Below are positions 24,401 to 36,400 of a stretch of DNA of 64,000 nt, one piece after another. The notes beneath the pieces are model-generated. The model ran no database searches, was not told the origin of the DNA, and saw nothing but the letters and a program-made list of their open reading frames with translations. Location of the stretch: the NCBI GenBank assembly GCA_963966185.1, contig CAWZYM010000407.1, positions 1 through 64,000 on the forward strand, given 5' to 3'. How positions within the stretch are numbered: position 1 is the first letter of the stretch; each line of letters starts with the position of its first letter. Made by a program: the position numbers and the translations under genes. This stretch comes from Rhabditoides inermis. Taxonomy: Eukaryota; Nematoda; Chromadorea; Rhabditida; Rhabditidae.

Positions 24401-27400
24401 TCTCGCCTGCATCTCCACGTAGTCGAGCTTCTTCTAATGCAGTCTCACACAACGCACATGTCGGACAGCGGGTGAACGCACAACGCTACAAAAATGAAAT
24501 TATAAACAAATTGACGAAAATAACTCACAGTCACAAAACTCGTTCGAGGCACGGGGAGATTGTCGAAGAGTCGATTGTAGTTGATATCGCTGATACCCTT
24601 CTCACGAACAATGGCCCTGAAATGAATAATGGCCCTGAAGTGCGAACAACTTTGTCTACCCACTTCTTGCTCTGTCCGATGAAGTATTTTTCCGAACCAG
24701 GATGTTGTTGAGCGCGGAGGCGAATTTCGTTTGTCAAACTAGCCTTTAACTGAACTTGAGACGGAGAAAGTTGGCGAGCACGGTTGCTGTGTGGACATGA
24801 TGGGTGCAAAGCCTTCTGCAGTCTGAAAAGAATGTCATACCACTTCACACAAGTTATTCCTTACATAAAGTCAGAGGCTCCAGTGATCTCCTGGTAGAAG
24901 TTTTTGCACACCTGTATACCGTCAATCGTTGGCGAGAACTTGTAGGTTGTGTCACTCGTTGGCATAGCACATCTCGTAACATCCAAAAGAATAGAGTCGA
25001 CAATCTTCTCTTTGGTGACTCCACTTAGACTGCACGAGATGAAAGAGGCGCGATACAAAGCTAACCGCAAGCTTAAAAAAAGAGTACAATTCAAATTGTA
25101 TAAACTGACTCACGGACTGAACCTATAGTTGCACAATGAAGAGCAGCAGTTAGAGTGGACCAGTTGTTGGAAAGGAACCAGATTTTTTCCTTTCATTCCT
25201 TGCATGAGGTTGACGTATACCTCATTTGCTCGCAGAACTTTTGCTAAAAAACTACGATAAAAAATTGAACAGAAATATACAGTCACATATGGTAGTATCG
25301 TTCTGCGTTGCATGATCGTCAAACGGCTTCTCCTTCACCTCCCTATCGCACTGTTCTCCTTCACTCCAGTCGCTGTCAACCGTGGTGTTTCCGGAATGGA
25401 CGTTCATCTGAAACTTGCGAGAATAATTTCATTGAACCAAAGTATTACTTATAATAATAATAATACTAATTGTAATAATAATAATAATAATACAATGATT
25501 ATCCGCAATGAAAATGACAAATCGTGCATTGTCGTGCAAATTGACGCGCACTTTTCACCCACATTTGTCACTATAATGTTTTGTCTTGTTTTTAAAATTT
25601 GCAATAATGTTTGTTTTTGTTGTTGATTATTTGTTTTTGTTCACGTTTCTTTTATTTTTTTGGTTTCCAGATGACGGAAGGTGATAACGAGGACATCACT
25701 GAAGTTCTGTGGTGCCAAGAGGGATTTGATCCTCCGCCGGTTTCTCTTCTAACTGAAGTGAGTTTTTTTTTTAAAATAAAACCTCATTGTGATTGTACTT
25801 TTTGGTTGTTTGTTTTGAGTACCTCATTTGTTTAGATTTCCCTGCATGCTGACTGTATGGGATACTACATTAGCAATGGCATGTTGCGTGTTCGTCGCGG
25901 TTCGTCGCGCACATTCAGTTCTTTTCGCGTAAAGGACGGCGAATCTCTGGTGGAGGTCCGAATAGTGGCTATTCGCAAGCTCAACAAGGACTACGTGGAG
26001 GTATGTGTAATTATCAGAAGTTATTGTGTCTTTGTTCAGGTGATTGCCAATGACAAGCTGATAATCCAACTTCCCGTTCGTCAACTCGAACGCTCACGTT
26101 CCCGCGGCCCTCTGTATGCAGCACTGAAATCAATGATAAAGCATGGTAAAAGAAATAATAGTTTTTTCTTTATTGTTCGTTTTTCCAGAGTCCACTCGCG
26201 CTATCGAGCCGCCGACCGCAATGGGATACGAGGAGAACTTCGTCTTTAATGGCGATGGGTCACCGACAAGCAGTGTATCTGTCTTGGAGAAGGAGAGATC
26301 AGAAGATCTCGCTGCTGTCAGCGCAACGATTCGCGCTTCGAGAAGGCCCGGTTAGTCAACATTTCATACCTTTCTGTAACTTTTTTTTCACTATCTTAGA
26401 TGCTCCTATCGCTATATGTATGATGGATGTGCCGCCTACGCCTCTTCTTCGGCCTCTTGATCCCAGCCACGTGGAGCGATTTAAGAAGGTATGTCACATT
26501 GAAGTCTTCGTATTTTTGTGATTTTTTTCAGGCGTTTTTGCGAGGCAACTCGCTCCAATCAATGGTTGTTCTCAACCAACAGAAGAACGGACGGTATATT
26601 GTCGTCAAGGGCTGTCACAGGTACGCCATTAACCGAATACGGTTTCATAATTTGCCTTGTTCAGAGTAACTGCCGCTCAAGAGGTACTCGCCGAAAATCC
26701 TGACGATGTGGAGAGGCTTCCTACGTTTTTCCACTCTCGTATCTATTCTCATCTGCCAGAGGAGTACGTTGCGTTCATCCTTCCCACCGAGGCGCGACTC
26801 GGTGCGGAAGTCCCTCCACTTTCGAGGACACTGTCACAAGAGGTAATCAAATGGAAGCTGTTGTTCTATTCATTTTATTTCAGCTTGCACTGTTGCACAA
26901 CGCAGCCATGAACACGATCGGCCTGATGCCGCCGTCGCCGGAAGCAGGCATGGCGACTATTTATTACCAAGCGCTACAGAAGCATTGCCATGCTTGGAAC
27001 GTGAGCTGTACAAAGACGCCGTGTCCCGACCGGAACGAGAGAGTGAGAGAGAGCACAGACACGTAAGAGAGAAGTGAGAGAGATCGACACTTATCGCCGG
27101 GACGATCCGCGTGAGCGGTCGCCCTTTCATGTATATTTACTATATGCGATAAAGTCACTTCTATATTACTGTTATGTATTTATTGGCGAGAGTATTGTGG
27201 CAACCCTCTCGACGGCCATGGAGACAGGTCTGATGTATTGTATTGTTATCACTGTAGATTACCGTAGTGACTATTACCATTACTGTAGTTATTAGTACCC
27301 TTACTGTAGAGTACCTTAGACTGAACCCTGCCCCATAGCTTAGTCTTGACATGGTGCATTAACCGTTTTAGAAACGAACACGGACTCACTGAACCACCTC

Positions 27401-33400: not shown

Positions 33401-36400
33401 CAGATTCACGAGCAGCTGCGCAGCGTGCAGAGAACGCATGGGATTTCACATTCACTTCCTCCAGCCTATCCACGATCAACCTATGCTCAGACCAAAAATC
33501 GTCATCCGACTGGTCCAGCCGGCGGAGGGACTTCAAGTGCAGCGTAGCCAGCGCGGAGAGCCCTTTGAGACCGCGCGCGATATCACGGGCGGACTAAAAG
33601 GGAGGCGTGAAAAAGTACTAGCCACGAGAATAGCACTCACATCTTCCATGTTGAACAGGCCCTCGAGTATGGCAAAAGCGTCGCGAGCATACTGTAATAC
33701 TGTATGACGGGAGAAGGTGACAGACGCCACTTACCGTATCGCGAGCAGACAGATCTTGATCAGAGAGAGTAGCCGCCTGTCCAACTAACTCTTCCCAAAG
33801 CTCGTGAAGAGCACTACAAGACGAACGCGCATCGTCGAGAGCACTCTGTAGCTGAACAGTGACGCGAGCGCGGTCAGAAAGAAAGACAGAACGGTCAGCG
33901 ACCCTCGCACTCAATTCCGTACGACGATCCGACTTGCGAGCGCGCAGCTGACTCATGGCAACTAAACAAAACAAAAATCAATTTATCTACAAAAAAAAAA
34001 TGCGCTATCAATGCGATTCACGAGCGAGGAAAGGCGTACACTACATTAGCATAAGCAGACGCCGCCTCCAACTCCGAGGCTAGCTCACTGGGGGTCAGAT
34101 ATAAGCTCCCGATAGCCAGGAGGTGAACACGGCGTTCAAGGACGCGAATACTGGGAAGCAGGGAAGGGGACTCCCAATCAAGAGGGACAAAATGAAAACG
34201 AGTCGACCGCTCAGCCGGATGCACATGATGAGGTAGGGCGACAACCGGAAAGAAAGGCGATTACAAAGAGGATTAAAATTTTGTAATTGATATCCACCTT
34301 TTCGACGACAGCCGCTATCCCCGCAAACTGCCGCACGTGAGTACGCAGCAGAGCGAGGCCACGCCGCACCCCACGGCAATGATTGGCCACCGGGCGCCAA
34401 AAGAGACTCTGGTCAGACGCCGGCGCATCCGATATCTCAAAGGGGCGTGCGCGAAGCGAAGTCAGCCCATTCAAACCAACAAGGGAGAAAACAAAAGAAT
34501 CCACAAGTTGAATGAGAGCGAGATCGATCAGAGCGAGCGGAGTGCGACTAAATGATTGTAATACAATCAAACGGATCAGCTACAGTATACCTGACGCGCG
34601 GCGGATCGGCAATGAATATAAGGCCGCATCGACGAGGGACGCGAGTCGGAAGGAATAGCTGGATCCATCCCAAAACCCAGTGACAATAAAATCTCCTTTC
34701 ACCAGCACATACATCGAAACTTCTAGAGAGTGAAGCTCTCACTCATCAAGTAATAGAGATGTGCAGATAGGCGCACTCACCCGCCTCCAATCAAGGTCAT
34801 TGCTTATCATAATTTATCGGGACAAGCAATTGAAATAAACAAGGATGAGGTAGCATGTGTGGATCGAGAAACGCAAGATTATATCATGAGCAATTGGACG
34901 CGACAGTCGGAGAAAGAGTATGGCCTAGGCAGCGGATTAAGACGACAGGGCGCGCAGAGACACAAGGCGCATCTGAGCAGCCGCAAGAGGAGCATACTCA
35001 CGCCTACCCGCCCCCTGACGATACAGAAGGTAAGCGACAGCAAAGGTGGAGATAATGGCGACAATGACAAGTACAATATGGCCGAGATCAATAGAAGCCG
35101 CGTCACACTCAACACACTCGCGAGAGCGAGAAGGGGAAGCGGATGAAAGGGGCACCGCCGAAGTAGTCGTAGGAGGCACGGGCTGCTGACGGCGACGATC
35201 GGTAGCATGAGACGATAGCACGCTCATCGGAAGACAGTGCACGATCCAAATTCTGGAACAACAGATTCCACCCTCTCTCCTTGCGCAATACACATTGGAT
35301 AGCAGATAAACAACTCACTCGGAAAGACGGACGATGCACAAGTGCCCCGAGGGACACCTCGGGCACGAGGCCGACACTTGCCACTCCCCGCAAGCCGACG
35401 GCGAGCGCGAGACGTACACACCAGCGACGCCAAGCAGAGCAAGAAGGAGAAGGACAAGAGAACGCATCTGAACGGGCAAATAGGCAGAGTTTCTAGAAAA
35501 CAAGGAAAACGAAACCAGCCGCCCTCGCCAGCCGAGTTGGATACAATGTATGAGGAGTGTCCAAGCCATGTCCTGTGAAGGCACATGTGGCGGATTCAAA
35601 GGGATTGCAAAGGGCATCCGAACCGCCACGCCACACACGATCTGATACAAAAGATGTAAACAATGATCGTAATCAATTGGCGTCACTCTAAAAACAAAAA
35701 AGGAGAACTTAAAAGAGGTTCTCGGAAGAAGAAAAAACAGTAACGTAATCGGCAGCGCGCACTCACTCTACCGTCACTTCACACCAGACGCGACTATACC
35801 TACCAGCCGTCAGAAGAAGCCTTCATCGTCAACGACAAAACAACACGTCAACGACAACACGTCTTCAACAAGCGACAGGAGGAGACCCACTACCGAACGT
35901 AGACTGAGAAGCCCAAAAAACAGGGCAATTATCACTTTATAAATTTATAAGTATCGATTATCTCCCCCCCGTGTCACATCACTCATTACACTCGAGATGT
36001 TCTCGAGTCCCCCCCGGAATGTCCCGACCGGAACGAGAGAGTGAGAGAGAGCACAGACACGTAAGAGAGAAGTGAGAGAGATCGACACTTATCGCCGGGA
36101 CGATCCGCGTGAGCGGTCGCCCTTTCATGTATATTTACTATATGCGATAAAGTCACTTCTATATTACTGTTATGTATTTATTGGCGAGAGTATTGTGGCA
36201 ACCCTCTCGACGGCCATGGAGACAGGTCTGATGTATTGTATTGTTATCACTGTAGATTACCGTAGTGACTATTACCATTACTGTAGTTATTAGTACCCTT
36301 ACTGTAGAGTACCTTAGACTGAACCCTGCCCCATAGCTTAGTCTTGACACGCCGATGCGTTTGTTCATTTTAACGAATAATAAGTTTTCAGAACAAACAT

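What the first reader, a model, noticed from the sequence alone, without database searches (positions are those of the whole stretch)
27022..36349. Gag-only LTR element carrying an operon-like cluster of three antisense genes
Seen: identical LTRs, 5-bp target duplication, intact 952-codon Gag, no enzyme motifs, and on the opposite strand three multi-exon genes (34,884-35,467; 34,018-34,714; 33,150-33,956) with phase-consistent introns, 169- and 61-nt gaps, and a 3' splice site 0-8 nt before each ATG. Known: nematode operons have short gaps and trans-splice sites; antisense extra ORFs are known in some plant LTR elements. Inference: a non-autonomous BEL/Pao-type element that ferries a trans-spliced cargo cluster, including a signal-peptide membrane protein.
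Basis: partly seen in the sequence, partly recalled or inferred. Interest (0 to 1): 0.92.

Follow-up and report, generated by a model that had tools for sequence, protein, structure and literature searches.

The report
Retrovirus-like element with antisense gene operon
A young retrovirus-like element in a nematode genome carries three genes on the strand opposite to its gag gene; their protein sequences are preserved between two diverged families of the element, and they are likely expressed together as accessory genes of the element.

Summary
The element is real: identical 330-bp LTRs and a 5-bp target duplication. It is not a gag-only design but an internally deleted copy. Relatives with the same LTR are 17.3 kb and carry gag, Pao-type pol and a phlebovirus-G2-like env; this copy lost 8.0 kb between gag and the region after env. 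The antisense genes belong to the parent element. Exon queries find 43-46 full-length, stop-free matches each. All three genes recur, with the same exons and gap lengths (222/61 versus 224/67 nt), in a second family about 70% identical. Protein identity is 66-68% at synonymous divergence 1.2-1.6 (dN/dS 0.15-0.19). Corrections: gene 1 stops at 34937; gene 2 carries a frameshift private to this copy among 12 aligned; gag is truncated; a sense zinc-knuckle gene was missed. New: a noncoding block at 35530-35690, mostly 88-94% identical between families. Antisense transcription, trans-splicing and function are inferred; no RNA was available. Verdict: new variant of a known kind (env-bearing BEL/Pao element), with an antisense multigene module not seen in ten paper searches.

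The parts
27017..27021 (.). target-site duplication, left (cgccg)
   Evidence: read directly
27022..27351 (+). 5' LTR, 330 bp, TGTC...GACA
   Evidence: 40 scored hits of 106 candidates in the genome
27352..27369 (+). candidate tRNA primer-binding site (begins TGG); the same bases follow the 5' LTR of the diverged family
   Evidence: tRNA not identified
28383..28618 (+). array of 20-nt units in the leader, nine holding the palindrome CGGAC-NNN-GTCCG; that motif has 0 matches in the leader of the diverged family
28920..31690 (+). Gag part of the Gag-Pol-Env frame (DUF1759), cut off by the deletion; the ORF runs on to 31778 out of register
   Evidence: no CCHC zinc knuckle
31686..31692 (.). internal deletion junction, 7-nt overlap; 8.0 kb lost against 17.3-kb relatives
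   Evidence: the exact junction occurs in 3 copies
32134..32442 (+). sense zinc-knuckle gene, main exon (three C/H knuckles); start upstream not defined
   Evidence: 57% identity in the diverged family
32514..32594 (+). sense zinc-knuckle gene, next exon (acidic), predicted
   Evidence: GT-AG, phase consistent
32658..32837 (+). sense zinc-knuckle gene, last exon (charged, coiled-coil-like); 3' end frameshifted here and in C547, open in the three other copies looked at
35319..35467 (-). antisense gene 1, exon 1 (predicted signal peptide, Cys-rich)
34937..35252 (-). antisense gene 1, exon 2 (Ser/Pro/Thr-rich stretch, predicted single transmembrane helix, tail), stop included
   Evidence: dN/dS of the gene 0.18
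34591..34714 (-). antisense gene 2, exon 1; one-base frameshift in this copy, absent at that site from the 11 others aligned
34298..34547 (-). antisense gene 2, exon 2; an in-frame 120-nt stretch is absent from the diverged family
34018..34209 (-). antisense gene 2, exon 3, stop included
   Evidence: dN/dS of the gene 0.19
33735..33956 (-). antisense gene 3, exon 1
33641..33691 (-). antisense gene 3, exon 2
33150..33593 (-). antisense gene 3, exon 3, stop included (predicted helical first half at low confidence; one 3-nt in-frame insertion private to this copy among 12)
   Evidence: dN/dS of the gene 0.15
35530..35690 (.). noncoding block upstream of gene 1, mostly 88-94% identical between families where antisense exons are mostly 61-74%
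36020..36349 (+). 3' LTR, identical to the 5' LTR
36350..36354 (.). target-site duplication, right (cgccg)
   Evidence: read directly

Best explanation
The window element is an internally deleted copy of a 17-kb, env-bearing BEL/Pao retrovirus-like element whose last 4.7 kb holds three conserved antisense genes, predicted to be expressed as one trans-spliced operon and likely to act as accessory genes of the element. Shown: the parent element, the deletion, and the conservation of reading frames, splice junctions and gene order in two diverged families. Inferred: after integration the sense strand would give genomic RNA and Gag-Pol-Env from the 5' LTR, while an antisense promoter in or near the 3' LTR or the conserved block at 35530-35690 would give a pre-mRNA that the host cuts into three mRNAs by spliced-leader addition. 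Because the introns of these three genes are antisense to the genomic RNA, sense splicing would not remove them during replication. Gene 1 would be a type I membrane protein, gene 3 a largely helical protein; their tasks (regulation, export, assembly or superinfection control) are unknown, and I think regulation or assembly of the element itself the most likely. The shortened copies would move with proteins made by full-length relatives.
For: Parent element: LTR hits pair at several spacings; copies in C401 and C318 match the window element at both ends around an 8-kb insert. The C401 insert holds, above Pfam's cut-offs, an aspartyl protease, RVT_1, Pao Peptidase_A17, integrase zinc-binding domain, DUF5641 and Phlebovirus_G2 (E 6e-55); RNase H and the integrase core score only below cut-off. 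Best solved relative of the env piece is 7a4a (E 7e-28), which I take to be Atlas Gc (recalled; the call names it 'Integrase catalytic domain-containing protein'). RT motif YVDN in both families, the nematode belpaovirus form named in PMC9094657 (passages).

Antisense genes: copies. The diverged family (L031, C201; LTRs 314/314 identical, duplication gtctg) has all three genes with the same exons and splice junctions and an acceptor before each ATG. Between a copy of the window's family (L014) and L031: gene 1 100/151 identical, dN/dS 0.18; gene 2 99/147, 0.19; gene 3 162/237, 0.15. Shifted antisense frames give pN/pS 1.04-1.98; the plus-strand frames tested hold 3-14 stop-bearing codons each. 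Gene 3 introns are 50-55% identical against 68-73% for its exons. Gaps 222/61 versus 224/67 nt.
Against: No RNA, proteomic or functional data. Splice acceptors near ATGs are common by chance (15 of 58 ATGs on this strand), and gene 2's acceptor differs in position between the families. No known domain in genes 1-3. The 5.4-kb derivative in C4 has paired LTRs and a target duplication yet lost the antisense genes, so they are not needed in cis. Two introns do not behave as neutral controls: gene 1's intron (81.5%) and gene 2's first intron (74%) are as conserved as neighbouring exons. dS is about twice that of pol (1.2-1.6 against 0.74-0.79), so the module may have a different history from pol (recombination) or a different substitution rate. 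One of the two near-full-length copies read (C318) shows no matching target duplication.
Confidence: 0.74

Rival explanations
1. The antisense genes are real proteins but not an SL operon: each has its own promoter, or one long antisense pre-mRNA is alternatively cis-spliced.
For: Gap 1 (222-224 nt) is longer than the roughly 100 nt I recall as typical of nematode operons; acceptor-like sites before ATGs are common by chance; the conserved block lies only upstream of gene 1.
Against: Little room for a promoter between genes 2 and 3 (61-67 nt); gaps are kept in length between families while their sequence diverges (61.5% and 48% identity); an acceptor sits before every ATG in both families.
Confidence: 0.2
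2. Host cargo: three neighbouring host genes were captured in antisense orientation and are merely carried along.
For: Intron-containing genes survive the RNA stage most easily in antisense orientation, so a captured host operon would look like this (inference; no call tests it).
Against: In the same genome the matches to gene 1 exon 2, gene 2 exon 2 and gene 3 exon 3 lie in or resemble the two element families, apart from one weak row for gene 1 (41%, E 0.018, with a stop) and unresolved fragments; none in the protein database for gene 3 exon 3. Two families with identical LTR pairs both keep the frames.
Confidence: 0.12
3. The antisense strand matters as RNA only (regulatory antisense transcript); the ORFs are by-products.
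For: The most conserved stretch is noncoding (35530-35690, mostly 88-94% identity) and folds better than most shuffles on both strands (z -2.1, 8 of 200 shuffles as good; z -2.45, 2 of 200).
Against: Mismatch fractions at codon positions 1, 2, 3 of 0.24/0.18/0.52, 0.30/0.22/0.56 and 0.27/0.13/0.54 for genes 1, 2 (exons 2-3) and 3; dN/dS 0.15-0.19; exon indels between families in multiples of three except the window's private one in gene 2.
Confidence: 0.04

Closest known systems
Atlas virus and other nematode env-bearing belpaoviruses (PMC9094657, passages read)
   Same: Gag-Pol-Env in one frame, Pao-type RT with YVDN, phlebovirus-like Gc as envelope
   Different: 'Antisense' and 'accessory' occur 0 times in the main text; this element is 17.3 kb and has four extra genes after env
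Retand and Grande plant Gypsy elements with antisense ORFs (PMC11963269, passages read)
   Same: Antisense coding region between pol and the 3' LTR (2.9-6.6 kb in Retand), present in nearly all recently active elements
   Different: Plant Ty3/Gypsy lineage; TRP28-domain proteins; 'intron' occurs 0 times in that text; no operon-like trio in the passages seen
HTLV-1 HBZ and HIV-1 ASP, antisense retroviral genes (PMC10186651 and PMC8622228, starts of abstracts and passages)
   Same: Antisense genes of a provirus, under negative-sense promoters in the 3' LTR; ASP is membrane-associated
   Different: As I recall, one antisense gene per virus; ASP overlaps env, whereas here the three genes lie after env and overlap no sense gene that I found
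CERV of C. elegans Cer1 (PMC10309623, passages read)
   Same: A nematode LTR element with an extra protein made from spliced RNA
   Different: Sense strand, sharing exons with Gag; 'antisense' occurs 0 times in that text

Membership tests
Belpaoviridae / BEL-Pao (ICTV profile PMC8742986, whole text read) | LTRs of 0.2-1.2 kb flanking the coding region | tested here: met
   330 bp, 100% identical, 5-bp duplication
Belpaoviridae / BEL-Pao | Gag-Pol with PR, RT, RH, IN in this order and Pao-type RT | tested here: met
   In the full-length relative C401: aspartyl protease, RVT_1, Peptidase_A17, integrase zinc-binding, DUF5641 above cut-off in that order; RNase H (E 0.064) and integrase core (E 0.034) only below cut-off. 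Absent from the window copy by deletion. No RT tree was built.
Belpaoviridae, nematode branch | YVDN at the RT active site and phlebovirus-like Gc Env | tested here: met
   YVDN in both families; PF07245 E 6e-55; 7a4a best solved match
Belpaoviridae / BEL-Pao | Nucleocapsid domain in Gag | tested here: inconclusive
   No C-x2-C-x3-5-H-x4-C motif in Gag or the pol pieces of either family; a basic Asn/Gln/Gly-rich stretch stands there, and a zinc-knuckle protein is encoded separately after env
Belpaoviridae / BEL-Pao | Polypurine tract of about 10 nt before the 3' LTR; PBS for tRNA-Arg or tRNA-Gly | tested here: inconclusive
   The stretch before the 3' LTR is CCCCCCCGGAA in both families, not a plain purine run; PBS begins TGG but the tRNA was not identified
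Belpaoviridae / BEL-Pao | Genome 4-10 kb with one to three genes (described range) | tested here: not met
   17.3 kb and 15.5 kb with at least four further genes
Nematode SL-trans-spliced operon | Genes on one strand with short gaps, 3' splice site before each downstream ATG | tested here: met
   Gaps 222/61 and 224/67; acceptor before each ATG in both families; weak on its own
Nematode SL-trans-spliced operon | One polycistronic pre-mRNA and SL-tagged mRNAs | not testable with these tools
   No RNA data held
Retroviral antisense gene (HBZ/ASP type) | Antisense transcript from a 3' LTR promoter encoding a protein | not testable with these tools
   Coding selection computed; promoter and transcript not shown

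The most novel reading that the evidence does not exclude
An animal retrovirus-like element with an ambisense provirus: a sense gag-pol-env unit and, converging on it from the 3' LTR side, a second polycistronic antisense unit of three intron-bearing accessory genes that borrows the nematode's operon and spliced-leader machinery, so that the provirus can make accessory proteins independently of its genomic RNA.
Probability: 0.58. Interest if true: 0.87.

Novelty: new variant of a known kind. Interest (0 to 1): 0.76.

Why it matters
Antisense coding by retroviruses has long been argued about; as I recall, the known cases are single genes, and ASP overlaps env, which makes selection hard to separate. 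Here three antisense genes lie in their own region after env, with predicted introns, and two young diverged families allow a dN/dS test that they pass. If expressed as an operon, this would be an integrated retroelement using trans-splicing as its second expression programme. Many young copies with open antisense frames make stranded-RNA and peptide tests direct. The internal-deletion copies also offer a natural series for asking which parts a non-autonomous copy must keep.

Tried and rejected
Chance ORFs: rejected by cross-family codon statistics. Nested insertion of another element: disfavoured, as the module sits in the same place in both families, and the repeat search of the window's element reported only the LTRs and the leader array inside it (minimum 40 nt). 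A coding extension of gene 1 through the conserved block: unlikely, since an indel between the families shifts that frame. Known RNA in the block: no Rfam match up to E 5 in 35400-36020; A/B changes at paired positions keep pairing on both strands (4 of 4 plus, 6 of 6 minus), but the structure was fitted to these two sequences, so this is weak and the strand is undecided. Domain searches of the antisense exons: nothing above cut-off; profile of gene 3 exon 3 against solved structures: best E 0.099. Fold of gene 3 exon 3 from one sequence: mean pLDDT 53, not used further. Homologues of gene 3 exon 3 in the large protein database: none scored E <= 1 among 168 candidates; the RT piece gave 2 hits, at 32% and 24% identity. 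The bacterial promoter scan does not apply to this host. Six other env-bearing families (one copy each read downstream of env, a second copy each for extent): no match to antisense genes 1-3 below E 0.04.
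Full report
The element and its bounds. The LTRs at 27022-27351 and 36020-36349 are identical over 330 nt, begin TGTC, end GACA, and are flanked by cgccg on both sides. The host is a nematode: the 22-nt SL1 sequence occurs 368 times exactly, its reversed control 0 times. The LTR search scored 40 of 106 candidates; all 40 rows show 100% (rounded) over the full length.

It is a deletion copy. One search shows 13 further LTR pairs besides the window's; I fetched 11 of them (C142 and C127, both about 17.3 kb by spacing, were not fetched). 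Two of the 11 (C401, C318) are 17.3 kb. They match the window element from 27022 to about 31692 and from about 31686 to 36349, with about 8 kb between. In C401 that insert codes for an aspartyl protease, Pao-type RT, integrase zinc-binding domain, DUF5641 and a phlebovirus-G2-like Env; RNase H and the integrase core score below Pfam's cut-offs. Four rows hold the env domain inside one open frame of 3559 codons. The window's 952-codon 'Gag' therefore ends in about 29 residues read out of register past the junction. The exact junction occurs in three copies, C407, C533 and C547, and C547 has its own target duplication, so the shortened form has probably moved as such. Eleven of the 12 two-LTR copies in hand (window included) show a 5-bp duplication; C318 does not. 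Of these 12, 10 carry internal deletions of about 1 kb or more at several places; 9 of the 10 keep the antisense region and one (C4, 5.4 kb) lost it. Deletions may simply fall in the middle, so I draw no selection claim from this.

The antisense genes are genes. Exon queries, window included: gene 3 exon 3 in 55 matches, 45 full length at 99-100%, none with a stop; gene 1 exon 2 in 50, 43 full length; gene 2 exon 2 in 50, 46 full length. One remote row and one fragment hold a stop. One-base indels occur: in L032 (C582), and probably in the split matches of C21, C210 and C26. These copies are too alike to test selection: 12 aligned copies differ at few sites. The test comes from a second family (L031/L039, C201:205509-221057, 15.5 kb, LTRs 314/314 identical, duplication gtctg). 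It carries env, the sense zinc-knuckle gene and all three antisense genes in the same order. Two further loci on C342 (L029, L030) keep gene 3 exon 3 open at 65% identity to the window. Aligned to the window on the minus strand, exon ends, GT-AG introns and an acceptor before each ATG recur, and indels inside exons are multiples of three apart from the window's private frameshift in gene 2. Using L014, a copy whose three antisense frames are open, against L031, dN/dS is 0.18, 0.19 and 0.15 for genes 1, 2 and 3, with pN/pS 95% bootstrap ranges 0.24-0.44, 0.24-0.45 and 0.23-0.37. Shifted antisense frames give pN/pS 1.04-1.98 (the lower bounds of three of the six ranges fall below 1). The plus-strand phase that shares silent sites gives 0.46-0.48, but that frame holds 7-10 codons with stops. 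For comparison PR-RT gives 0.06 and RH-IN 0.12, with dS 0.74 and 0.79. The higher dS of the module is unexplained; recombination between element lineages would do it.

Against the simple picture: gene 1's intron and gene 2's first intron are as conserved as neighbouring exons (81.5% and 74%), while gene 3's introns are 50-55%. Some intron sequence may serve another task.

Gene products. Gene 1 (154 residues) has a hydrophobic start and one strong hydrophobic stretch in the second half (Kyte-Doolittle 2.18 and 2.65 over 19 residues), so it is predicted to be a type I membrane protein with a Cys-rich outer part. Gene 2 (188 residues in L014) has no recognised feature. Gene 3 (237 in L014, 238 here) is predicted helical in the first half of exon 3 at low confidence. 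No family or solved structure matches above cut-off.

The conserved block. Between gene 1 and the 3' LTR, 35550-35700 is 88-94% identical between the families in 50-nt bins, while 35700-36000 is 42-72%. A 28-nt core occurs 47 times in the genome, all exact though three mismatches were allowed; one lies in C201, one in the C4 derivative that lost the antisense genes. Both strands fold better than most of 200 shuffles (z -2.1 plus, -2.45 minus) and no Rfam family matches. It contains GTAAACA at 35656, which I recall as a forkhead-type site. It may be the antisense promoter, or a sense RNA signal such as an export or packaging element; retention in C4 fits the latter slightly better, from one case.

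The sense zinc-knuckle gene. Neither family has a CCHC motif in Gag or the pol pieces, but both encode a triple-knuckle protein after env. Knuckle motifs also lie after env on the plus strand in C83 and C326 elements and (by eye) in C214, and on the minus strand in C69. C410 showed none; minus-strand motifs in C331 lie beyond the part shared by two copies and are not assigned. So accessory genes after env seem common here, and the strand can differ.

How it likely works. Shown: anatomy, deletion, selection. Inferred: antisense transcription, trans-splicing, accessory role, mobilisation of short copies in trans. The operon layout rests on gap lengths of 222/61 and 224/67 nt and on acceptors before each ATG, which are common by chance (15 of 58).

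Novelty. ICTV's profile describes belpaovirids as 4-10 kb with one to three genes (PMC8742986, whole text). A survey of BEL/Pao elements (PMC3118150) has 0 occurrences of 'antisense' (passages), as has a repeat survey of Pristionchus pacificus (PMC9297572, passages); a paper on rotifer LTR elements with extra ORFs uses the word once, for small RNAs (PMC5408684, passages). Plant Retand elements do have antisense ORFs after pol (PMC11963269, passages), and HTLV and HIV have antisense genes (PMC10186651, PMC8622228; starts of abstracts and passages). Ten searches of the open-licence library showed no antisense multigene cluster in an animal LTR element in their listings; I read listings, not all papers, and subscription papers are mostly outside that library.

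Noticed in passing
27001-27021 and 36355-36391: The element sits in what reads as a 58-nt host intron (GTGAGC...TTTTCAG) of a plus-strand gene with open frames on both sides, so it would have turned a tiny intron into one of about 9.4 kb.
   Followed up: partly
28383-28618: Leader array of about 12 units of 20 nt, nine with the short palindrome CGGAC-NNN-GTCCG: a possible row of small RNA hairpins between LTR and gag; the motif has no match in the leader of the diverged family.
   Followed up: partly
L033 read in env orientation (reverse complement of the locus), 2647-2336, minus strand; C69 family: Another env-bearing family has a triple zinc-knuckle ORF on the antisense strand after env, weakly similar (E 0.001) to the sense zinc-knuckle gene of the window element.
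   Followed up: partly
G000: The genome holds 99 scored Phlebovirus_G2 matches (a lower bound) of clearly different score classes, many with open frames over 2500 codons: a rich set of env-bearing elements.
   Followed up: partly
36009-36019: The stretch before the 3' LTR is C-rich (CCCCCCCGGAA) in both families where a polypurine tract is expected.
   Followed up: no
22491-22699 and 37354-37519: Two arrays of a 42/84-nt palindromic satellite (AATTTGGCGCG...GCCAAATT units) lie on either side of the element.
   Followed up: no
42761-42833: A tRNA-Phe (GAA) gene on the plus strand.
   Followed up: no
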